Assembly (NCBI GenBank): GCA_009777415.1
Contig: WRLX01000003.1
Location: 1-47,615, forward strand
Length of the DNA: 47,615 nucleotides
Reading direction: 5' to 3'
Origin: Oscillospiraceae bacterium
Lineage (GTDB): Bacteria; Bacillota; Clostridia; Oscillospirales; Ruminococcaceae
Of this stretch, positions 1-47,022 are shown piece after piece. Numbering within the stretch: the first letter of the stretch is position 1; each line of letters begins with the position of its first letter. The notes under the pieces are model-generated. The model had not been told where the DNA came from, did no database searches, and saw only the letters and a list, made by a program, of their open reading frames with translations. A program made the position numbers and the translations under genes.

Positions 1-160
1 TTTCCTCAATCGGCTATCAAAAGCTTAAACACGGTTATCGCCCAAAGCACTACATCTTATCGCCATGCTTTTACCCTTTCCTCAATCGGCTATCAAAAGC
101 TTAAACACGGTTATCGCCCAAAGCACTACATCTTATCGCCATGTTTTTGCCCCTTCCTCA
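1..160 (-). repeat. Tandem 76-bp repeat (2.1 copies, continuing off the window edge) downstream of fliP. Each unit has an RBS-like GAGGAAAGGGTAAAAGC, an ATG and a 13-codon ORF (MAIRCSALGDNRV*)
   Basis: TTTCCTCAATCGGCTATCAAAAGC... begins at 1, 77 and (partly diverged) 153. Minus-strand ATGs have their A at 142 and 66. Confidence 0.85.
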
Positions 161-165
161 ATAAG

Positions 166-1044
166 CTATCCGTATCTGAACGATGTGACTATTGCCCCGA
201 CTAACATTTGCCATCCATCAACAAGCACAAACAGCATAATCTTAAACGGCAAAGAAATCATCGCCGGAGGAAGCATCATCATTCCCATTGACATCAGCGT
301 TGATGCAACCACCATATCTATTATCAAAAACGGAATAAACAGCAAAAACCCCATTTGGAACGCCCTTGAAAGTTCGCTTATCATAAAAGAGGGAATGACC
401 ACCCGCAAGCTTAACTGCTCTTGATAGTTAAGGTAATTGACCTCACCTGTAGGCAGTATCGGGATTTGGTTGCCCTCCTCGTCTAAGTCAAACAAAGTCG
501 CATCGGCTAAATCCATGAAAAAACGCATATTAGCCGGGGTTGTCTGTCTAAGCATAAAAGTTTTCAGCGGTTTGCCCGCTTCCTCAACTGCTTCCCACGC
601 AGTATATTCCCCGTTTACATAGGGTCGGTATGCCTCATCATTAATCTGCGCAAATACCGGCCACATAATAAACATTGTAAGGAACAAAGCAAGTCCCGTT
701 AAAACTTGGTTCGGCGGCGTTGATTGGGTACTCATTGCGTTTCTCAAAAACCCGAATACAATTATTATACGGGTAAACGATGTCATCATCAAGAGAATCG
801 ATGGTGCAACCGATAAAATCGTAATCAGCAACAGGATTTCCAACGGCTGTGAGCCGTCTACGCCAATCAAGTCATTTAACGCCGAGGATTCGGGTTCGGG
901 TGCAAGTTCCACCCCTTCGTTAGCCGCATCAGCCATCAGTCCGGTTTCGCCCGGTGCCGATGTTACCGTCATTGTGAGCATGGAAACAAAAAGGGCTATT
1001 ACAGCGAAAAAAACAAAAAATCTCGCAATTTTAAAAACTTTCAT
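166..1044 (-). CDS. fliP: Flagellar biosynthesis protein FliP
   Basis: Signal peptide, then LEILLLITILSVAPSILLMMTSFTRIIIVFGFLRNA...TPPNQVLTGLALFLTMFIM, typical of FliP; position in operon. Confidence 0.97.
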   Translation of the reverse strand: MKVFKIARFFVFFAVIALFVSMLTMTVTSAPGETGLMADAANEGVELAPEPESSALNDLIGVDGSQPLEILLLITILSVAPSILLMMTSFTRIIIVFGFLRNAMSTQSTPPNQVLTGLALFLTMFIMWPVFAQINDEAYRPYVNGEYTAWEAVEEAGKPLKTFMLRQTTPANMRFFMDLADATLFDLDEEGNQIPILPTGEVNYLNYQEQLSLRVVIPSFMISELSRAFQMGFLLFIPFLIIDMVVASTLMSMGMMMLPPAMISLPFKIMLFVLVDGWQMLVGAIVTSFRYG

Positions 1045-6465: not shown

Positions 6466-6640
6466 AGTTTTACCCCTGCCCCTTCTGCACAATCGGGTGT
6501 TAAAAGTTTCGTTTTCCGCATTTACTCGGATTTACTTTCAAACTTTTACCCCTGCCCCTTCTGCACAATCGGGTGTTAAAAGTTTCGTTTTCCGCATTTA
6601 CTCGGATTTACTCTCAAACTTTTACCCCTGACCCTTCTGC
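6466..6640 (-). repeat. Two tandem copies (76-bp period) of the dispersed upstream-ORF repeat preceding flbD, each with a 13-codon ORF (LRVNPSKCGKRNF*, LKVNPSKCGKRNF*)
   Basis: TTG starts with T at 6617 and 6541; flbD ATG at 6465; exactly 76 bp start-to-start. Short ORFs 6576-6617 and 6500-6541. Confidence 0.85.
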
Positions 6641-6649
6641 ACAATTAGC

Positions 6650-16119: not shown

Positions 16120-17757
16120 CTAAACTTCGTCGTCGCGCAGCCATGTTCTTATCAATTGTGCGATAATATCCGGATTTGTTTTTGAAAACTCTTTTATTTC
16201 GCGCTTGAGCACAACATCCTTTGTATCGGTTTCCTCAAGCAGACTTTGCAGTTCAAATGCATCTTGGTCGGGAATAACCGGCTGAAATGAATCATCGCTG
16301 ATATATCCGCCCGCGCCTTCTGTTGCATACGCCATTGTGCGGTTGCGGACAAAACGTTTTTTCTTAGAGCCGGATGTAGTTATCGCCAAGATAAACAAAA
16401 TTACCAAAAGCACGCCCAATGCTACAATAATCCATATAAGGATGTTGCGTGTCATGTCGCCCGATTCGAAACCGATTCGGTCTCCCGGAGTCTGGCTGAG
16501 GGCGAAAACTCGCGTTGCCACAGTAACTTCCATCGCGCCTGTTGCGTTTTGGACAATTCCCTGCCACGTTTCAATTTCGGCGGGGGCAAGCGGCTCGGAA
16601 TCGACTACAAGAGAAGCAGTCGTTCTTTTTATCCGCAGACCCGTATTCTTATAGGTTTCGAGCCGTCTGTTAATCTCGTGGTACACATCCCGTCCCCATT
16701 CCACGTAAAACTCTCCACCCGGCTCTACTTCGGGGACTGTCGGGTAATCGGGGGCAACGTCCCCGTTGTTGGGAAACCCTATCAATCCGCCGTCTAACGC
16801 AGTTCCTCCCGCCGCGGCTTTTTCCGAAATAGTCCTTATAATTCCGCCGTCAAGCCCTTCCACAGGTGTAAATATCTCTTCAATTACTTCTCCGTCATCG
16901 CTGAAGTCCAACTCAACATTAACCGCAACATAGTAGCCGCCTTCGCCCCATACAGCCGCCAACAGCGGATTAAGCCGCGCCTCGGCGTTATCTGCCATGA
17001 GCGAAATCATGCCCGCCTCCAACGTGAGTCTTTGCTGCATTAATGCGAGGTCATCGCTTGCCCTTCCCGACAAGTCATCGGGTATAAGCTGAATACCATT
17101 TCCGTCTGTTACAGTTATATTATGCTCCTTAATGTCGGGAATAGCGTTTAAAACCATCAAGTGAATCCCTTTTATTTGTTCGTTACTGAGCGTTTGACCC
17201 GCTTTCAAGGTGAGCATCACAGTTGCACGCGGTTCTTGCCTGTCTTCTACCATTACGTAATTCTGAGAGTTTGGAATATGTAATATTACCATTGCACTCT
17301 CAACCTGGGGAATACTTGTCATTTGCGCCATTATCCATTCTTGGAGTTGATGCTTGGCTTTTTCGTTCTTGTCCCTGTCTGTCGAGAACATACTGACACC
17401 GGTGTCCCACGTGTCATAGTTAAATCCTGGACGCGGCAAACCTGCATCAACAATAGTTGTACGCGCAAGAACGACAACATTTTCAGGTACAAGAACATCA
17501 TTGTTAAGATTAGTCCTGACATCGGCAATCCCCGCCGTCGCCAAAACATTGGTTATTTCAAGTGCTTCATCTGCACCGGATGTTTTACACAGCAAAACAT
17601 GGCTTGATGTGTTCAAAAGTGCTGTTATTACAATTGCGGACACGATAATAACTCCGGCAACCGCGAGAATTACCGCCCTAGTTTTCCCGGCAAGCCCCGT
17701 CCATTTCTCTTTTGTCGTTGTGTATGTTTTCGAGAAAGTCTCTTTCACTTTTTCCAT
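16120..17757 (-). CDS. fliF: Flagellar M-ring protein FliF
   Basis: DNAEARLNPLLAAVWGEGGYYVAVNVELDFSD; PRPGFNYDTWDTG...MFSTDRDKNEKAKHQLQEWI. Start at 17757 preferred over MARLCRKVKGKI, which lies in the repeat. Confidence 0.95.
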   Translation of the reverse strand: MEKVKETFSKTYTTTKEKWTGLAGKTRAVILAVAGVIIVSAIVITALLNTSSHVLLCKTSGADEALEITNVLATAGIADVRTNLNNDVLVPENVVVLARTTIVDAGLPRPGFNYDTWDTGVSMFSTDRDKNEKAKHQLQEWIMAQMTSIPQVESAMVILHIPNSQNYVMVEDRQEPRATVMLTLKAGQTLSNEQIKGIHLMVLNAIPDIKEHNITVTDGNGIQLIPDDLSGRASDDLALMQQRLTLEAGMISLMADNAEARLNPLLAAVWGEGGYYVAVNVELDFSDDGEVIEEIFTPVEGLDGGIIRTISEKAAAGGTALDGGLIGFPNNGDVAPDYPTVPEVEPGGEFYVEWGRDVYHEINRRLETYKNTGLRIKRTTASLVVDSEPLAPAEIETWQGIVQNATGAMEVTVATRVFALSQTPGDRIGFESGDMTRNILIWIIVALGVLLVILFILAITTSGSKKKRFVRNRTMAYATEGAGGYISDDSFQPVIPDQDAFELQSLLEETDTKDVVLKREIKEFSKTNPDIIAQLIRTWLRDDEV

Positions 17758-17852
17758 TATTTTACCCTTGACCTTTCTGCACAAACGTGCCATAAAAGTT
17801 TCGTTTTCCCATTCAACAAGTGCCTATTTTCAAACTTTGTGACCTTGACCTT
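17758..17852 (-). repeat. Degenerate copy of the dispersed upstream-ORF repeat preceding fliF (TTG 76 bp upstream of the ATG; ORF truncated to LKIGTC*)
   Basis: GCACGTTTGTGCAGAAAGGTCAAGGGTAAAATAATGG on minus; TTG with T at 17833. Confidence 0.75.
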
Positions 17853-17882: not shown

Positions 17883-18188
17883 CTAAATTTGCATTCTTAT
17901 AATTTCGTTGTAGGAATCGAGGACTGTATTCCTCACGTTTGTGAGCAATTCTACTGCAAGCCCCGCCTTTTCCTTATTAAGCTGAATCATTTCCAAGTCG
18001 TCTGCCTCACCTAACACTAATCTGATTTTATCCGCCGCCGAAATCTCCGACATTTCAACCGCATCGCCGAAAATACGTGTGAATACATCAAGAAAAGTCG
18101 GTTGCCCCGATGAACCCGTATTAGTAACCGGAGCGGTAACTGTTCCCCCTCCAACCTGCGGAATACCGATAATATTAGTAATGTTCAT
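17883..18188 (-). CDS. fliE: Flagellar hook-basal body complex protein FliE
   Basis: FTRIFGDAVEMSEISAADKIRLVLGEADDLEMIQLNKEKAGLAVELLTNVRNTVLDSYNEIIRMQI. Confidence 0.95.
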   Translation of the reverse strand: MNITNIIGIPQVGGGTVTAPVTNTGSSGQPTFLDVFTRIFGDAVEMSEISAADKIRLVLGEADDLEMIQLNKEKAGLAVELLTNVRNTVLDSYNEIIRMQI

Positions 18189-18232
18189 GTTTTTACCCTT
18201 GTCCTTTCTGCACAATATGTGCCATAAAAATT
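18189..18232 (-). repeat. Partial copy (hairpin + SD half only) of the dispersed repeat preceding fliE
   Basis: Minus: TTTTTATGGCACATATTGTGCAGAAAGGACAAGGGTAAAAACATG. Confidence 0.75.
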
Positions 18233-19288: not shown

Positions 19289-19375
19289 GTTTTCACCCAT
19301 GCCCCTTCTGCACAAATGTGCCGTTGAAAGCCTCTTTTCCGCATTTACGCAGATTTACTTTCAAACTTTTATCCT
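19289..19375 (-). repeat. Copy of the dispersed upstream-ORF repeat in the flgB leader; 23-codon ORF LKVNLRKCGKEAFNGTFVQKGHG* (19293-19364)
   Basis: TTG with T at 19364, exactly 76 bp from the flgB ATG; GCACATTTGTGCAGAAGGGGCATGGGTGAAAACATG. Confidence 0.85.
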
Positions 19376-22106: not shown

Positions 22107-22928
22107 ATGGCAAGAATTATCACTATAACCAATCAAAAAGGCGGTGTAGGGAAGACTACCGTCTGTGCGTCTATTTGCGGTTGCCTGTCTGAAATGGGCA
22201 AATCCGTCCTCGCCATTGACCTTGACCCGCAGGGGAATTTGTCGTTCAGCTTAGGGGTTGATGCAACTTCGGGCGGCTATACCATGTATAACGCACTCAA
22301 ACAAACGGTCGGGATTTATGATATAATCCAGCATACCGAAATATGCGATGTTGCCCCGGCTAATATTACTCTTTCGGCTTGTGAGCTTGAATTGACCTCG
22401 GTAGGGCGGGAACATATCCTTAAAGAACAGATTGATACCGTTGCTGCCGATTATGACTATATCTTGATTGATACCCCGCCCGCGCTGTCGGTGCTTACAA
22501 TCAATGCTTATGTCGCGTCGGACTGGCTTATTATCCCCATGATTCCCGAGATTTTGTCGTTGCAGGGGTTCGCCCAATTGCAAGAAACTATTTATGCCAT
22601 TAAAAAGTATTACAACAAAATGCTCGAAGTCCGCGGAATTGTGCTTAACCAATATAACCCGCGTCTCATTTTAACTAAGGAAGTCGAGGAACTCGCCAAT
22701 ATAATCGCCGAACAGCTTGATACCGATGTGTTTCAGCAAAAAATAACGAGCAGCGTTGCGATTGCCGAAGCACCCGCTCACGGTAAGACAGTGAGCAATT
22801 ACGCGCCGCGTTCTAAATCGTCAATGGAATTTTCCGACCTTACATACGAGATATTGGGATTGGAAAGACCTAAACGCAAATCGTCTAAGAAAGGGCGTGG
22901 ACGTGTTAAGAAGGATGTGAAAGCTTGA
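22107..22928 (+). CDS. ParA/Soj-family ATPase (start uncertain; GTG at 22044 possible)
   Basis: IITITNQKGGVGKTTVCASICGCL...VLAIDLDPQGNLSFSLG. Confidence 0.9.
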   Translation: MARIITITNQKGGVGKTTVCASICGCLSEMGKSVLAIDLDPQGNLSFSLGVDATSGGYTMYNALKQTVGIYDIIQHTEICDVAPANITLSACELELTSVGREHILKEQIDTVAADYDYILIDTPPALSVLTINAYVASDWLIIPMIPEILSLQGFAQLQETIYAIKKYYNKMLEVRGIVLNQYNPRLILTKEVEELANIIAEQLDTDVFQQKITSSVAIAEAPAHGKTVSNYAPRSKSSMEFSDLTYEILGLERPKRKSSKKGRGRVKKDVKA

Positions 22929-23048
22929 AGCATATAATAAGGGCAATGCGACCTAAAAGCTGGAGTAAAAAAGAGCTGGGAAGTGTTAAAAGGTGGTGAA
23001 AGCTTGAAACATATAATAAGGGCAATGCGACCTAAAAGCTGGAGTAAA
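22895..23048 (+). repeat. Tandem ~79-bp duplication of the UbiA-family gene's start region; first copy is a 24-codon ORF (LKHIIRAMRPKSWSKKELGSVKRW*) at 22925-22999
   Basis: GAAAGCTTGAAxCATATAATAAGGGCAATGCGACCTAAAAGCTGGAGTAAAAA occurs twice; TTG starts at 22925 and 23004. Confidence 0.92.
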
Positions 23049-23864
23049 AATGTTTTCATTTTTATCCCGATTGTTTATGCACTTGAGTTGTTTAATTCCG
23101 ATAAAATGTTGTCCGTTATTGTCGCTTTTGCCGGGTTTTGCTTTATTTCATCGGCAGTGTACCTTTTTAACGATGCATACGATGCCGAAAAAGACGCGGC
23201 GCATCCCGTAAAAAAACACCGACCGATAGCGTCCGGCATAATCTCAAAATCAAAAGCATGGTTTCTTGCGGGATTACTTGCCGCCGTTGGTGTTTCTGCC
23301 ATGGCTTCCTTGACTCTTTTTTGGGGGAGTTGTGCAACTCTGATATTCAGCGTTATATACTTAGCTTTAAATGTTGCGTATACGCTGAGTTTAAAGCATA
23401 TGCCTATTATCGACTGTTTTTGTATAGCGGCGGGGTTTTCGCTCCGCATTTACATAGGAGGTGCGGCAAGCGGTGTAGCCGTTTCGGATTGGCTTTTTTT
23501 GACAGTTGTTGCCGCCTCATTGTTTATGGCATTCGGTAAGCGACGCGGCGAAATGATTATGAGCGAAAACGCCGACGAAACGAGAAAATCCCTGACACAG
23601 TATAATTTGGACTTCCTGAAAGGGGTTGTCTTCATCTGTGCCGCTTTGGCAATTGTTTTTTACTCGCTTTGGACGTTGGAGAGAGGGAACAATATGGTCT
23701 ACACCGTCCCGCTGATTATATTCATCGTGTCTAAGTATCTGCTCTTAATCCATGAAGTTAATTCACACGGCGACCCCACTACCGTAATATTCGGCGACAA
23801 AACATTTCTGCTGTCATGTGGGCTGTATGCGGTTTTGACCGTTTTGCTACTATATAGTATATAA
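23004..23864 (+). CDS. UbiA-family prenyltransferase, decaprenyl-phosphate phosphoribosyltransferase-like
   Basis: MRPKSWSKNVFIFIPIVYALE...YLFNDAYDAEKDAAHPVKKHRPIASG. Confidence 0.85.
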   Translation: MKHIIRAMRPKSWSKNVFIFIPIVYALELFNSDKMLSVIVAFAGFCFISSAVYLFNDAYDAEKDAAHPVKKHRPIASGIISKSKAWFLAGLLAAVGVSAMASLTLFWGSCATLIFSVIYLALNVAYTLSLKHMPIIDCFCIAAGFSLRIYIGGAASGVAVSDWLFLTVVAASLFMAFGKRRGEMIMSENADETRKSLTQYNLDFLKGVVFICAALAIVFYSLWTLERGNNMVYTVPLIIFIVSKYLLLIHEVNSHGDPTTVIFGDKTFLLSCGLYAVLTVLLLYSI

Positions 23865-29684: not shown

Positions 29685-29770
29685 TTTTTTACCCTTGTCC
29701 TTTCTGCACAAGCATGAAATCAAAAGTTGCGTTTTCCGCATTTACCAAGAACACTTTTAAAGCTTTTACC
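29685..29770 (-). repeat. Degenerate copy of the dispersed upstream repeat preceding gpsA
   Basis: Minus: GGTAAATGCGGAAAACGCAACTTTTGATTTCATGCTTGTGCAGAAAGGACAAGGGTAAAAAAGTG. Confidence 0.75.
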
Positions 29771-32979: not shown

Positions 32980-33077
32980 AAGAAAGGGCAGGGGTAAAAG
33001 TTTGAAAGTAAATCTGCGTAAATGCGGAAAAAGAAACTTTTAAAGTACATTTGTGTAGAAAGGGCAGGGGTAAAAAA
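32980..33077 (+). repeat. Copy of the dispersed upstream-ORF repeat; 13-codon ORF LKVNLRKCGKRNF* (33002-33043), 76 bp from the downstream ATG
   Basis: AGAAAGGGCAGGGGTAAAAGTTTGAAAG...TTTTAA...ACATTTGTGTAGAAAGGGCAGGGGTAAAAAAATG. Confidence 0.85.
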
Positions 33078-33542
33078 ATGAGTAAATCGGCAAAAATCAG
33101 GATTCCGAAAGATGTAACGGCACTATGTGAGCAAGTCGCAAAGGGGTACGAAAGGCGCAAAAAGGACTATGAAAACAGGAGGATGGACATAATTTACTCG
33201 CACACATCCGGGTTTGAGGGTGCAGTCGGCGGGGCAAGAGGGAACAGTGTATCAGACCCGAGTGCGGCAAAAGCCGAACGGCTTGAAAAACTCGAGGAGA
33301 GCCTTGATGCCAAGTTTGTACGCGCAGTGGAGCGGGCGATTATATCGTTAGGGGCAGACGTTGCGCGGGATTCACGCGAGAAATTACGAAAGGCAGTTCT
33401 GCTTAACTGTGAAAACGGGCATGAATACCCGTATGAGATTTTGGGGATTGACGAATTTTCAAGAAGAGAATTTTACAGAAGGAGGAAAAGTTTTATCGTA
33501 GAAATCGGCGCTGAATTAGGCTTGCTCAACTTTGACAGTTGA
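33078..33542 (+). CDS. Small protein resembling phage late-gene regulators of the RinA/ArpU type (tentative)
   Basis: C-terminal YEILGIDEFSRREFYRRRKSFIVEIGAELGLL; divergent from the XRE regulator. Confidence 0.45.
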   Translation: MSKSAKIRIPKDVTALCEQVAKGYERRKKDYENRRMDIIYSHTSGFEGAVGGARGNSVSDPSAAKAERLEKLEESLDAKFVRAVERAIISLGADVARDSREKLRKAVLLNCENGHEYPYEILGIDEFSRREFYRRRKSFIVEIGAELGLLNFDS

Positions 33543-35929: not shown

Positions 35930-36049
35930 TTCTTACAGCACACTCGTGCAGAAAGGGAATGGGTAAAAAGTTTGAGAATCAATCTTCGAATAAATGGGAA
36001 AACGAATTTTTACAGCACACCCGTGCAGAAAGGAAATGGGTAAAAAGTT
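35930..36049 (+). repeat. Dispersed upstream-ORF repeat, one full plus one partial copy; 23-codon ORF LRINLRINGKTNFYSTPVQKGNG* (35972-36043)
   Basis: GCACACTCGTGCAGAAAGGGAATGGGTAAAAAGTTTGAG and GCACACCCGTGCAGAAAGGAAATGGGTAAAAAGTTATG; 78-bp start-to-start. Confidence 0.85.
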
Positions 36050-36607
36050 ATGAAAAAAACTCTGCTTGTTATTCTTTCGGTGATTAGCGTGTTTCTTTTA
36101 GCGGTCAGCGTGACTGTACTCTTCACATCTTGCAGTCACAGTAATGCGCAACCGCTTGAATCCACAACCGAAGCCACAGAACTCACAACAACAGACTCAA
36201 CAACCGCTACTCAGCGGACAACTGCCGCATCGGCAACCACCACTAAAAAAGAAACAACCACAGTTGTAACAACAACACTTGCGGCTACAACATCAAAGAC
36301 TAATAATGCGATACCGGCTAATAATGCACCGGCGGCCGATAATACTCAAGCGGCTAACAACACTCCGCCTCCGCCACAGCCTACCGGCCCGCCACCGACT
36401 AACAACACTCCGCCACCGCAGCAACCTACCAACCCGCCACCTCCTCCACCGCAGCCTACCGCTACCGACCCGCCACCTCCTCCTCCGCAACCTACCGACC
36501 CTCCTCCACCCCCGCCACAGCCTACCGACCCTCCTCCACCTCCACCGCAACCTACCGACCCGCCGCCTCCTCCTCCGGATGACGGCTGTTGCCCGGATTG
36601 CGATTAG
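36050..36607 (+). CDS. Secreted lipoprotein with Ser/Thr-rich then proline-rich repeat region and a Cys-rich tail
   Basis: Lipobox-like LFTSC; PPPPPPQPTDP repeats; DDGCCPDCD C-terminus. Confidence 0.8.
   Translation: MKKTLLVILSVISVFLLAVSVTVLFTSCSHSNAQPLESTTEATELTTTDSTTATQRTTAASATTTKKETTTVVTTTLAATTSKTNNAIPANNAPAADNTQAANNTPPPPQPTGPPPTNNTPPPQQPTNPPPPPPQPTATDPPPPPPQPTDPPPPPPQPTDPPPPPPQPTDPPPPPPDDGCCPDCD
36420..36580 (+). repeat. ~30-bp coding minisatellite (PPPPPPQPTD units)
   Basis: Repeated CCTACCGACCCTCCTCCACCCCCGCCACAG-type units. Confidence 0.8.
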
Positions 36608-36694: not shown

Positions 36695-36803
36695 AAGCGC
36701 GTTTTGCGCAGAAAGAAAATAGGTAAAATAATGAAAATAATCTATGTAAATGGGAAAACGAACTTTTATGGCACATTTGTGCAGAAAGGGAATGGGTAAA
36801 ATA
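36695..36803 (+). repeat. Copy of the dispersed upstream-ORF repeat with ATG start; 22-codon ORF MKIIYVNGKTNFYGTFVQKGNG* (36731-36799)
   Basis: GCGCGTTTTGCGCAGAAAG (36697) and GCACATTTGTGCAGAAAGG (36771); ATG to ATG 73 bp. Confidence 0.85.
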
Positions 36804-38657
36804 ATGAAAAAAATATTAACTTTAATGCTTTTAACAGCATTCGTACTTTCGGTTTGTCCTTTTGTGAGCTTTGCCGACACAAAAAACGACCAAATCTTAT
36901 GGATTCTTAACTCGGCACAAGGCAACGGCGAATTCAGCTATAAATTTGAACTCGCACGTACCCAAGCGCAGATTGATGCGGAACAACGCGGTCAAACCGG
37001 TATCGTCGAAGGCAAAGACGGGCATATCAGAGTTTTCCACGAAAATCGTACCGACGGTGTACCTAACGGCACATACACCGAAACTACCAACTCCAATGCA
37101 ATGGCAGTTTTTGCAAGGAATTACAGGCTTCTCACAATTGATACGGCACAGTCATGGTTCATTTTCGAGGGTGACACAATGTGTGGTGTGACAACGACTG
37201 ATTTCAACGGTAATACTGTTACGAAACAAATCAGTGAACTCAAAAACAGCCTCTCGGGGCTTACTGCCAATGCACCACACTCAAATAAAACTCAGCTTTG
37301 GTGGCTGATTGATGCCGCACGAGGCAAAGGCGAGTTTAGTTATGAGTTTGAACTCGCCCCCTCACAAGCGCAGATTGATGCGGGAACTCACGGACAACGC
37401 GGTGTAGTCGAAGGCAAAGACGGGAATATAAGAGTTTACCACCTTAACTCAAACGGAACGTACACCGAAACAACCAACTCAAACGCAATGGCAATCTTCG
37501 CGCGAAATTACAGATTTCTTACTCAACGTAACCACAATCACAACAATGCAGGTCAGCCCGGACGCATTGAGCCGTCATTCCCCGCGTGGTTGGGATTCGA
37601 CAACAACGGTGAGGAATTCGGAAACTCAAACTTTGAGCTTTTCCCGTTAGTGAGCCATGCAACTTTGACAGGGGCGGCAAACCCGTATGAAATGAACCTC
37701 TTGTCTGCTGACACCGAGCGCGAAAAAGCTATGCTGTTCATCTACGAAGGCGGCACTATGAGTGCAGTTCGCTACTATATGCCAAACGGTGATGCAGTGC
37801 TTAAAAAAATCACTAACTTAAAACCCGCGCTTTCGGGGATTGAAGGAATTGCAAACGCAAACCATTCAAATAAAACTCAGCTTTGGTGGATTATTGACTC
37901 AGCCCGCGGCAAAGGCGAATTCAGCTTTAGCTTCGAACTTGAGGACGGCACAAAAGGCAGTGTGCAGGGAAAAGACGGCACAGTGAGCACTTACACCGAT
38001 GACGGCAACGGGACATATAGTGTTGCCCCCGGTTCGGTTGTGGCGACTACATTCGCATCCCGCTTCAAGCTTCTTACTCAATTTAGCCATAATCACAACA
38101 ACGAAACAACTGCGGGCGAACCCGGTTCACGTCCTTTCCCCGCGCCTCACCCCGAATGGCTGGGATTAACCGATAACGGCGTTGGATTTGCCAACGGAAA
38201 CTACGAACTCTTCCCGTTGGTAGCCGAGGCAACATTAACAGGTGCGGCAAACCCGTTTGAAATGAATCTCACACCGGAAAGAGCGACTTCCGGCGAGATT
38301 GAGCGTACAGGCGATATGTTCTTCGTCTACGACAACGGTGTAATGAGTGCGGCTTGTTTTAACAACACTTATATAAAAATATCGAATTTGAAAAATAGTG
38401 TTGAAAGCGCGATTCAGCCTGATTTCATTTTAGGGCGAATCCTCGACAATAACGACGAACCCACAATCTTTGACGTACTTGAAATATTAAAACACATTGT
38501 CGGTATGAACGGCGTGATTAAATCCGGCGGACCGGACTCCCGTGCATGGAATGCGGCGTTGATTACGCCTGAGTCGCAAGTGAGCGGTACGCCTACTATA
38601 TTTGATGTGCTGGAGATTTTGAAGTATATCGTGGGGATGGATAGTTTGGTTGGATAG
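36804..38657 (+). CDS. Secreted repeat protein (three ~100-residue internal repeats) with a C-terminal dockerin-like duplicated helix module
   Basis: Signal peptide; repeats (Q)LWxxxSARGKGEFSYxFEL...; C-terminal PTIFDVLEILKHIVGM and PTIFDVLEILKYIVGM. Confidence 0.8.
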   Translation: MKKILTLMLLTAFVLSVCPFVSFADTKNDQILWILNSAQGNGEFSYKFELARTQAQIDAEQRGQTGIVEGKDGHIRVFHENRTDGVPNGTYTETTNSNAMAVFARNYRLLTIDTAQSWFIFEGDTMCGVTTTDFNGNTVTKQISELKNSLSGLTANAPHSNKTQLWWLIDAARGKGEFSYEFELAPSQAQIDAGTHGQRGVVEGKDGNIRVYHLNSNGTYTETTNSNAMAIFARNYRFLTQRNHNHNNAGQPGRIEPSFPAWLGFDNNGEEFGNSNFELFPLVSHATLTGAANPYEMNLLSADTEREKAMLFIYEGGTMSAVRYYMPNGDAVLKKITNLKPALSGIEGIANANHSNKTQLWWIIDSARGKGEFSFSFELEDGTKGSVQGKDGTVSTYTDDGNGTYSVAPGSVVATTFASRFKLLTQFSHNHNNETTAGEPGSRPFPAPHPEWLGLTDNGVGFANGNYELFPLVAEATLTGAANPFEMNLTPERATSGEIERTGDMFFVYDNGVMSAACFNNTYIKISNLKNSVESAIQPDFILGRILDNNDEPTIFDVLEILKHIVGMNGVIKSGGPDSRAWNAALITPESQVSGTPTIFDVLEILKYIVGMDSLVG

Positions 38658-44982: not shown

Positions 44983-46224
44983 TCACAAGCCAATCAACCT
45001 CTCAACCGCCGACAAAACCCCAATCCTACCCGAGGCAAAAGTCATACCCCCCTGTAAAAACACAGTGTAAGGTTCGCGTATCGGCGCGTCCGCACTTAAC
45101 TCAATCGACGCTCCCGAAGTAAACGCTCCCGCCGCCATAATTACCTTATTATTATAGCCCGGCATATCCCATGGCTCGGGTGCGGCAAAACTGTCAATCG
45201 GGCTTCCCGCTTGGATTCCCTCGCAAAAAGCGCGTAGTCGGCTTTCGCATTTAAGGTTGATTGCCGCGATTATATCAGTTCTGCACTCATCGTCAAAGCG
45301 CGGAAAACACTCATACCCCAACAGCGACATTAACGCAAGCGCAAACGCAGACGTTTTAAGTGCGGCGGCAACAGTTTCGGGTGCGCGAAAAAGCCCCAAA
45401 TACATGGCGCGGTTTTGGTTAAGGCTGCACCCGGCTTCCGAACCGATTCCGGGTACGGTAAGGCGGCAGGCACACAGCTCGACTAAGTCATCGTTGCCCG
45501 CAATGTAGCCGCCTGTTTCGGCTATTCCGCCGCCGGGGTTTTTAATAAGACTTCCCACTATTAAATCCGCGCCGACTGATACAGGCTCAGTCTTTTCGCA
45601 AAACTCGCCGTAGCAGTTATCAACCATAACAATTGCGGAAGGATTTACCCCCTTGACCGTTGTCACAATTTCGCCGATTTGGCGGACAGTCAGCGGTTTT
45701 CGCAGGGAGTATCCCCTTGAACGCTGAACAAACACCGCTTTAACCCTTGAATCGGCACACTCCCGCCGAATTGCGGGAAAATCGGGTTCAAAGTCAGGGA
45801 GAAGCTCAACTTGGCTGTATTCTATGCTGTATTCTTTCAGAGAGCCGCCTGTGTCACCGCTAATCACACCATGCAGTGTATCATAAGGTTTACCCGTTAC
45901 CGAGACAAGCCTGTCCCCCGCCCGCAATACGCCGAAAAGCGCAACGGTAATCGCATGAGTTCCGTTAATAAAGTTGTGGCGGACTAACGCGCTTTTTGCC
46001 CCCAATGATTCGGCAAATACTTTGTCAAGGGTATCCCTCCCCTCATCACTATAGCCGTAACCGTTGCTCCCCCGCAGATGGTGCTCGGATACGCGGTTGT
46101 TAATGAACGCGCTTAATACTTTTTCGCCGTTGTGCCGCGCAATTTCGTCAAAACGCTTGAAGACAGCGGAACACATTTCCTCAGCTTGATTCGCTTTTTT
46201 AATTAACTTGTCGTTAAATTTCAT
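44983..46224 (-). CDS. Methionine gamma-lyase-like / aluminium resistance family PLP enzyme
   Basis: NHRVSEHHLRGSNGYGYSDEGRDTLDKVFAESLGAKSALVRHNFINGTHAITVALFGVLRAGD-type sequence; MVDNCYGEF. Confidence 0.88.
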   Translation of the reverse strand: MKFNDKLIKKANQAEEMCSAVFKRFDEIARHNGEKVLSAFINNRVSEHHLRGSNGYGYSDEGRDTLDKVFAESLGAKSALVRHNFINGTHAITVALFGVLRAGDRLVSVTGKPYDTLHGVISGDTGGSLKEYSIEYSQVELLPDFEPDFPAIRRECADSRVKAVFVQRSRGYSLRKPLTVRQIGEIVTTVKGVNPSAIVMVDNCYGEFCEKTEPVSVGADLIVGSLIKNPGGGIAETGGYIAGNDDLVELCACRLTVPGIGSEAGCSLNQNRAMYLGLFRAPETVAAALKTSAFALALMSLLGYECFPRFDDECRTDIIAAINLKCESRLRAFCEGIQAGSPIDSFAAPEPWDMPGYNNKVIMAAGAFTSGASIELSADAPIREPYTVFLQGGMTFASGRIGVLSAVERLIGL

Positions 46225-46241
46225 AAATAATTCCTCCGATT

Positions 46242-46270
46242 TTGTCTAATAATATATTATGTATTATAAT
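46242..46270 (+). promoter_or_regulatory. Promoter upstream of the triple short-ORF array
   Basis: TTGTCT-17 nt-TATAAT. Confidence 0.6.
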
Positions 46271-46295: not shown

Positions 46296-46539
46296 CGGAA
46301 AGGGCATGGTCATAAGTTTGAAAATAAATCTACGTAAATGGGAAAACGAATTCTTATGGCACATTTGTGCAGAAAGGGCATGGTCATAAGTTTGAAAACA
46401 AATCTACGTAAATGGGAAAACGAATTTTTATGGCACATTTGTGCAGAAAGGGCATGGTCATAAGTTTGAAAACAAATCTACGTAAATGGGAAAACGAATT
46501 TTTATGGAACATTTGTGCAGAAAGGGCATGGGTAAAAAA
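46296..46539 (+). repeat. Three tandem 74-bp copies of the dispersed upstream-ORF repeat; ORFs 46318-46389, 46392-46463, 46466-46543 (LKTNLRKWENEFLWHICAERAWS*-type)
   Basis: TTG at 46318, 46392, 46466, gene ATG at 46540: all exactly 74 bp apart; last ORF stops in ATGA overlap with the gene start. Confidence 0.93.
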
Positions 46540-47022
46540 ATGAAAAAAAAGATGATTTTTATATCGATTTCGGTTGCGGTTGCAGTCATTGCCGTAGCGG
46601 CTTATAAACTCTTCAATCCGCCCGTTGACAGTGTACCGTTGCAGAAACTTCAAGAGGAAATGTTCCTTTACGACAACTGGGCTGTCTTCCAAAAAAGCAC
46701 CGGCAGCCCTGTTATGGATGAGCGAGTTGCCGTTTATGCCGACAAAATGCTGGAGGAAGCGCGAAACAGCGGAATCGGGTTCAGCGAAGCTTCCCGCTAT
46801 GACTTGGGCATAGTTTTAGTGGACTTTGACGACGATGAGTCGGGCGAGTGGTTCAGGCGCAACTCATGGCGATTTGGTTTTAATTATCAAGGTGAGCGGG
46901 ATATGCAGGATAATGAGGCGGATTTCCGCTTTGTAGGCGTGTTCCCCGCCGAGCAAATGTATTACTCGGGCGTAAAGCCGGACGAGTATGCTGAGTTCCT
47001 TTCTTATCACGCTTTTATATAA
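46540..47022 (+). CDS. Hypothetical membrane-anchored protein
   Basis: MKKKMIFISISVAVAVIAVAAYKLF signal anchor; start at 46540 preferred over MGKRIFMEHLCRKGMGKK, which lies in the repeat. Confidence 0.75.
   Translation: MKKKMIFISISVAVAVIAVAAYKLFNPPVDSVPLQKLQEEMFLYDNWAVFQKSTGSPVMDERVAVYADKMLEEARNSGIGFSEASRYDLGIVLVDFDDDESGEWFRRNSWRFGFNYQGERDMQDNEADFRFVGVFPAEQMYYSGVKPDEYAEFLSYHAFI

What the first reader, a model, noticed from the sequence alone, without database searches (positions are those of the whole stretch)
46296..46543. Triple tandem short-ORF array with exact 74-bp periodicity leading into a gene start
Seen directly: TTG starts at 46318, 46392 and 46466 and the gene ATG at 46540 are all exactly 74 bp apart. 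Each short ORF (23, 23, 25 codons; K-[IT]-N-L-R-K-W-E-N-E-F-L-W-[HN]-I-C-A-E-R-A-W) carries its own purine-rich SD. The first two stop TAA-2 nt-TTG before the next start; the third stops in a classical ATGA overlap with the gene. A sigma-A-like promoter (TTGTCT-17-TATAAT) sits just upstream, so the array would be the 5' leader. Inference: a chain of translation re-initiations, acting as a tunable ribosome relay or leader-peptide array whose copy number could change by slippage or recombination.
Basis: partly seen in the sequence, partly recalled or inferred. Interest (0 to 1): 0.9.

Follow-up and report, generated by a model that had tools for sequence, protein, structure and literature searches.

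The report
Repeat cassette inserted at start codons
The three 74-bp repeats are one of roughly 150 found in less than half of this bacterium's genome, where a ~76-bp DNA cassette, alone or in tandem, sits exactly between a gene's ribosome-binding site and its start codon, a place no repeat family that I could find is known to target.

Summary
The array is real (three 74-bp units, starts at 46318/46392/46466/46540) but is not a one-gene relay. It belongs to a dispersed family of ~72-82 bp cassettes: 155 loci in 769 kb of this genome (~22% of genes), 90 with one detected unit and 65 with 2-4. At 146 of 155 a co-oriented start codon lies 3-14 nt after the last unit (90 at exactly 7). Each unit starts with a TTG/ATG that faces an upstream Shine-Dalgarno (SD) and ends with an SD that faces the next start. 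Relatives G022 and G062 have the uninterrupted SD-start site where G042 and G000 carry the cassette (0 of 24 G062 orthologues have it), so it was inserted between SD and start codon. It occurs in 9 of 71 genus genomes, in species-specific versions, and in none of the genomes sampled outside the genus. The short peptide is not convincingly conserved: nonsense changes are not depleted and several reading frames are used. The TTG lies in the 5' arm of a hairpin whose arms vary together. Best reading: a propagating, largely translation-neutral start cassette that expands in tandem and may tune translation. How it copies itself is unknown.

The parts
46297..46304 (+). SD (GGAAAGGG) upstream of the first unit
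   Evidence: sequence; left flanks of elements carry SDs as strong as real genes, median dG -10.9 vs -9.1 (genes without element) and -3.0 (random)
46318..46391 (+). unit 1 (start-to-start phase): TTG ... hairpin sequence ... SD; 23-codon ORF LKINLRKWENEFLWHICAERAWS
46392..46465 (+). unit 2, as unit 1 (LKTNLRKWENEFLWHICAERAWS)
46466..46539 (+). unit 3; 25-codon ORF whose TGA overlaps the gene's ATG; last SD 46519-46526 faces the gene start
46359..46370 (+). GCACATTTGTGC, second small hairpin of unit 1 (repeated at +74 and +148, there with one substitution)
   Evidence: sequence; arms conserved in the family
46540..47022 (+). downstream gene, 160 aa, no Pfam match
46242..46270 (+). promoter-like site TTGTCT-17-TATAAT, 10/12, within chance expectation
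6468..6645 (-). family array, 76 bp x 2.3, directly before flbD
17755..17813 (-). family copy, single, before a gene start
18184..18232 (-). 5'-truncated single copy before a gene start
19290..19371 (-). single copy before a gene start
29685..29745 (-). single copy before a gene start
32981..33081 (+). single copy with SD on both sides, ends at a gene start (33078)
35946..36046 (+). two-unit copy
36733..36809 (+). single copy before a gene start
22899..23050 (+). 79-bp duplication of a gene's own start region, same period and position, different sequence
1..170 (-). 76-bp array continuing as contig C24:1-225, before fliQ; sequence unlike the main family

Best explanation
The array is one copy of a lineage-specific dispersed repeat, a 'start cassette' of about 76 bp that is inserted in the spacer between a gene's Shine-Dalgarno sequence and its start codon. 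The cassette begins with a weak start codon (usually TTG) inside the 5' arm of a hairpin and ends with its own SD 7-8 nt before the next start. After insertion the native SD faces the cassette's TTG and the cassette's SD faces the native start codon, so the downstream gene can still be translated; this would make the insertion tolerable even inside operons and before recA, smc and flbD. Units then multiply in tandem by slippage or unequal recombination. Shown: family, position, orientation, lineage restriction, empty sites, tandem expansion. Inferred: that it is mainly a tolerated propagating repeat with at most secondary, copy-number-dependent effects on translation. Speculative: that it spreads by template switching or gene conversion between short SD-start homologies, since every donor offers two such sites ~76 bp apart and every recipient one.
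For: 155 loci in 769 kb; 146 end 3-14 nt before a co-oriented start, 90 at exactly 7 nt. SD left of the first unit as strong as at real genes; left flank is element-type SD in 60 of 96 loci and native-type in 27. Internal TTG/ATG sits at the same offset from the SD as real start codons. Empty sites: G022 GGGAGATAATT|ATG against G042 AAAGGAGATAAG|TTTGAAA...|ATG, with several further genes; 24 of 24 orthologues in the close relative G062 lack the element, as does all G062 sequence held. Same anatomy in nine genomes of two clades, with species-specific consensus. None in sampled genera outside the genus. Units within an array mostly match at 93-100%; copy number at flbD differs among species.
Against: Neutral insertion does not by itself explain why copies are almost never found elsewhere in intergenic DNA. 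Some arrays with the same ~76-bp period and position have other sequences and duplicate the gene's own start (smc, a UbiA-like gene), so unit length may reflect a mechanism or constraint not tied to the family. No enzyme was identified: Y1 transposase in 0 of 9 carriers, reverse transcriptase in 2 of 9. No expression data. Gene starts come from a home-made gene finder.
Confidence: 0.6

Rival explanations
1. Selected regulatory RNA leader: the two hairpins and SD form a translational control element (protein- or RNA-binding) recruited to many genes, unit number setting response strength.
For: Left arm TTGAAAGT and right arm ACTTTCAA pair better with their own partner than with permuted partners over 140 units in 7 species (mean -3.51 vs -2.98, sd 0.11, z -4.7; within G000 p 0.0015); three internally deleted copies keep the perfect hairpin; always in the leader at a fixed distance from the start.
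Against: Folding energy not below shuffled controls (mean z -0.62 against -0.61 for ordinary leaders); no clear column-wise covariation inside G000 and none in G042 alone; permutation does not remove relatedness; no Rfam family; no obvious shared function of the genes; absent from close relatives with the same genes.
Confidence: 0.2
2. Short-ORF relay: ribosomes start at each TTG, terminate near the next start and re-initiate; peptide or ORF number tunes the gene.
For: TTG frame open for at least 20 codons in 72% of units against 7% and 25% in the other frames; strong SD before the first TTG; synonymous excess 199 seen against 141 expected; ORF ends within ~6 nt of the next start in about half of the internal units.
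Against: Nonsense changes not depleted (38 seen, 34.6 expected); different frames used in the 3' half; a frequent 6-codon version; some ORFs fused in frame to the gene. TTG conservation also follows from the hairpin arm.
Confidence: 0.15
3. A position-specific duplication process that copies a ~76-bp window around start codons; the family is its most successful product.
For: smc (four 76-bp copies of its own first codons and SD), a UbiA-like gene (79 bp), fliQ (76 bp) and an flg gene (78 bp) share period and position without the family sequence; gene-start offsets cluster at 72-79 with little else; no such arrays in relatives without the family.
Against: Most loci share a family sequence unrelated to their gene, so dispersal between loci must occur; chimaeric replacement inside an older cassette could give the smc case.
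Confidence: 0.15
4. A hidden transposon or retroelement family (REP/IS200-605-like MITE, or a retroposed RNA with 5' truncations).
For: Hairpins; 5'-truncated copies are common (43 of 155 first units start beyond profile position 10) and 3'-truncated ones rare.
Against: No Y1 transposase in the carriers, reverse transcriptase in two of nine; no terminal inverted repeats at the element ends; no consistent target duplication seen at empty sites; loss of the 3' SD would be selected against, which explains the truncation bias.
Confidence: 0.1

Closest known systems
BOX elements of Streptococcus pneumoniae (PMC3049150)
   Same: Short dispersed repeats with a variable number of tandem internal modules, in intergenic DNA, able to alter expression of the gene downstream and to be transcribed; predicted stem-loops.
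   Different: BOX has distinct end modules (boxA, boxC) around boxB, and its BOX-made ORFs lacked good Shine-Dalgarno candidates; here every unit is equivalent, carries start + SD, and lies exactly between SD and start codon.
TAACTGA direct repeats of marine Beggiatoaceae (PMC4679880)
   Same: Genome-wide tandem direct repeats, forward-oriented and ending a few nucleotides before start codons, in genes of all functions; mechanism of spread unknown.
   Different: 7-bp units that take the place of the SD (SD rarely present); here ~76-bp units that carry an SD and a start codon and are inserted behind a native SD.
MITEs / REP-RAYT / IS200-IS605-derived palindromic elements (from general knowledge)
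   Same: Small, non-coding, hairpin-bearing, high copy number, lineage-specific bursts.
   Different: No terminal inverted repeats, no consistent target duplication, no Y1 transposase in carriers, strict location at SD-start.
Upstream ORF / leader-peptide attenuators (from general knowledge)
   Same: Short ORF with its own SD before a gene.
   Different: Peptide not convincingly conserved, units tandem and shared by ~22% of genes, no recognised attenuator or Rfam family.

Membership tests
Small interspersed repeat with tandem modules (BOX-like) | Dispersed, multi-copy, intergenic, with variable module number | tested here: met
   155 loci, 1-4 units in G000, up to 5 in G042
Small interspersed repeat with tandem modules (BOX-like) | Distinct boxA/boxC end modules around the repeated module | tested here: not met
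   single-unit loci are whole units between an SD and a start codon
MITE | Terminal inverted repeats at element ends | tested here: not met
   ends TTTGAAA... and ...GGGTAAAA are not inverted repeats; complementary arms are internal
MITE | Target-site duplication | tested here: inconclusive
   none consistent at empty-site pairs, but the relatives are too diverged to exclude a short one
REP / IS200-IS605 derivative | Y1 transposase present in carriers | tested here: not met
   PF01797 in 0 of 9 carriers against 15 of 62 non-carriers; carriers are incomplete assemblies
Retroelement | Reverse transcriptase in carriers | tested here: not met
   PF00078 in 2 of 9 carriers
Conserved peptide uORF / leader peptide | Purifying selection on the peptide (stops depleted) | tested here: not met
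   38 nonsense changes seen, 34.6 expected; synonymous excess only moderate
Known structured leader or riboswitch | Match to an Rfam family | tested here: not met
   only a tRNA in the window
TAACTGA-type start-proximal repeats | 7-bp TAACTGA units replacing the SD | tested here: not met
   units 72-82 bp and contain an SD
Translation coupling / re-initiation relay | Ribosome occupancy of units, output dependent on unit starts and stops | not testable with these tools
   needs ribosome profiling or reporters

The most novel reading that the evidence does not exclude
A kind of propagating DNA that targets the translation-initiation region itself: a mini-cistron carrying start codon and SD that inserts between any gene's SD and start codon by a process able to recognise or recombine at SD-start sequences, that can also duplicate a gene's own start in ~76-bp steps, and that colonises a fifth of a genome's genes while leaving them expressible.
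Probability: 0.35. Interest if true: 0.92.

Novelty: new variant of a known kind. Interest (0 to 1): 0.78.

Why it matters
Bacterial interspersed repeats are normally found scattered through intergenic DNA. One that sits almost only between SD and start codon would expose either a new way for DNA to spread (using the conserved SD-start as its landing site) or strong genome-wide selection on leader architecture. It would reset the translation initiation of ~20% of genes in one lineage in a few steps, turn unit number into a variable control of translation, and put tandem repeats before recA, smc and flagellar genes. Carriers with close non-carriers (G000/G062, G042/G022) make both questions testable.

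Tried and rejected
Peptide-coding selection: weak synonymous excess but no stop depletion, not accepted. Stable fold: MFE z-scores equal controls. Within-genome column covariation: nothing convincing. Rfam: only a tRNA. Y1 transposase and reverse transcriptase as drivers: absent or rare in carriers. Phage vehicle: three patterns in viral contigs, no hit. Assembly artefact: rejected, since units differ within arrays, several independent genomes show it, and contig ends are not enriched for the main family (0 of 42). Target duplication of ~45 bp (from locus-specific direct repeats): dropped, because many single copies have an unrelated native SD at left and a family right end. Orthologue of the 160-aa gene: no clear full-length orthologue in 40 genus genomes, so no empty site for this very locus. 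Literature searches found only BOX and TAACTGA repeats as near matches; the library is open-access papers only.

Full report
OBSERVATION. The array is as described: 74-bp period, 3.2 copies, 98% matches at 46298-46531; TTG at 46318, 46392, 46466 and ATG at 46540; ORFs of 23, 23 and 25 codons, two ending TAA 2 nt before the next TTG and the third overlapping the gene's ATG. The + strand promoter-like site is weak (10/12, chance expectation 1.8); a perfect one faces the other way.

IT IS A GENOME-WIDE FAMILY. Blastn inside the window finds further copies at 6468-6645, 17755-17813, 18184-18232, 19290-19371, 29685-29745, 32981-33081, 35946-36046 and 36733-36809. The genome (G000, 1.78 Mb in 162 contigs, 87% complete) gave 51 matches and 335 first-look candidates. 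In 769 kb taken out, TRF finds about 60 arrays of period 72-79, nearly all abutting a gene start. A profile finds 155 loci, 90 with one detected unit and 65 with 2-4, which extrapolates to ~360 per genome. A family-independent scan of gene starts shows ~95 of 675 with a direct repeat at offset 72-79 and little at other offsets; mid-gene control 1 of 525.

POSITION. At 146 of 155 loci a co-oriented start codon lies 3-14 nt after the SD's GGG, at exactly 7 nt in 90. Inside arrays TTG (70) or ATG (7) of 94 junctions sits in the same register. The flank before the first unit carries an SD as strong as real genes: median duplex energy -10.9, against -9.1 for genes without the element and -3.0 for random sequence. 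It is an element-type SD in 60 loci and a native-type one (e.g. TTGGAGGAAAAAGAAG|TTTGAAA) in 27. In 128 of 153 cases the upstream neighbour is co-directional, in 87 it ends within 50 nt of the element, so many lie inside operons.

EMPTY SITES. G022 lacks the family and is a close relative of G042, which has 38 loci in 164 kb. At orthologous genes G022 reads SD-spacer-ATG and G042 reads SD-spacer-[element]-ATG; clearest pair: G022 tagGGAGATAATT|ATGATTAATC, G042 aaaGGAGATAAG|TTTGAAAATAAACAC...AAGGACTTAATAAAAAAAC|ATGGTTAATC. For G000 the close relative G062 has none: 24 of 24 orthologues of element-bearing genes are plain SD-ATG, no profile hit in 400 kb, no TRF period between 64 and 89. At flbD G000 has 2.3 tandem copies, G042 2, G011 1 and G022, G009, G020, G019 and G003 none.

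DISTRIBUTION. Nine of 71 genomes of the genus carry the family (counts are lower bounds because candidates were capped). In a RecA tree they fall in two regions mixed with non-carriers, needing 3-5 changes. Among 245 genomes of the order only G000 matched (carriers of the genus other than G000 were hardly sampled there, and filters were strict). Each carrier has its own consensus but the same order: AAGTTTGAAA, a core with GGGAAAACG, TTTCA, a second arm pair, GAAAGG, then the start codon. Named neighbours are MAGs called Oscillospiraceae, one from a sample labelled Nt197P3; that these are termite-gut bacteria is my reading of the labels.

WHAT THE UNIT ENCODES. The TTG frame is open for 20 or more codons in 72% of units (7% and 25% in the other frames), and synonymous changes are in excess (199 seen, 141 expected), but nonsense changes are not depleted (38 seen, 34.6 expected), several frames are used in the 3' half, a 6-codon version ending at CGGTAA is common in several species, and a few ORFs run into the gene. 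The TTG also lies in an arm TTGAAAGT complementary to ACTTTCAA; over 140 units from seven species own arms pair better than permuted ones (z -4.7; G000 alone p 0.0015; G042 alone not significant), and three internally deleted copies are perfect minimal hairpins. Against a strong fold: average MFE is no better than controls, and relatedness is not removed by the permutation. I treat the hairpin as likely and the peptide as unlikely.

UNEXPLAINED. Some arrays with the same period and place have other sequences: smc has four 76-bp copies of its own first codons and SD, a UbiA-like gene (window 22899-23050) a 79-bp copy of its start, fliQ and an flg gene 76- and 78-bp units. Unit length may therefore reflect a mechanism or a constraint and not only descent.

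MECHANISM. Shown: insertion between SD and start codon, co-orientation, tandem expansion, lineage bursts. Inferred: the cassette is tolerated because the native SD serves its TTG and its own SD serves the gene. Speculative: spread by template switching or gene conversion at SD-start homologies. Neither Y1 transposase (0 of 9 carriers) nor reverse transcriptase (2 of 9) tracks carriage, and no viral contig matched.

NOVELTY. BOX elements (PMC3049150) share dispersed tandem modules; TAACTGA repeats (PMC4679880) share start-proximal tandem repeats. Neither carries SD and start codon or lies between them. I file it as a new variant of interspersed repeats; a categorically new class is not excluded. 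Limits: incomplete MAGs, a home-made gene finder, an open-access literature library, no expression data.

Noticed in passing
window 46291-46263 (- strand): Perfect sigma-70 consensus promoter TTGACA-17-TATAAT for the divergent methionine-gamma-lyase-family gene (44983-46224, PF06838), overlapping the + strand promoter-like site.
   Followed up: partly
window 22899-23050: 79-bp tandem duplication of a UbiA-like gene's own start (RBS, TTG and first ~15 codons), leaving a short truncated copy before the gene.
   Followed up: partly
G000 C15:11966-12265 (parts of L053): smc preceded by four 76-bp copies of its own RBS and first ~11 codons, plus a decayed fifth.
   Followed up: partly
window 1-170 and G000 C24:1-225: The same 76-bp array (before fliQ) ends both contigs: C3 and C24 probably adjoin and the assembly broke inside the array, so its unit number is unknown.
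   Followed up: no
G000 C2:26249-26419: recA itself carries a two-unit array directly before its ATG; the close relative G062 does not.
   Followed up: yes
G000 C2:13781, C8:12827, C22 minus strand 12021: Internally deleted copies reduced to perfect minimal hairpins (e.g. TTGAAAGTAAAACTTTCAA) that keep the SD half.
   Followed up: partly
window 36354-36577: Proline-rich coding tandem repeat (30-60 bp units) in an ORF, unrelated to the start cassettes.
   Followed up: no
L082 (G003), before flbD: A different ~30-bp direct repeat (agccaaacaagggctttagcttgacggcg, three copies) lies between flgE and flbD in relative G003.
   Followed up: no
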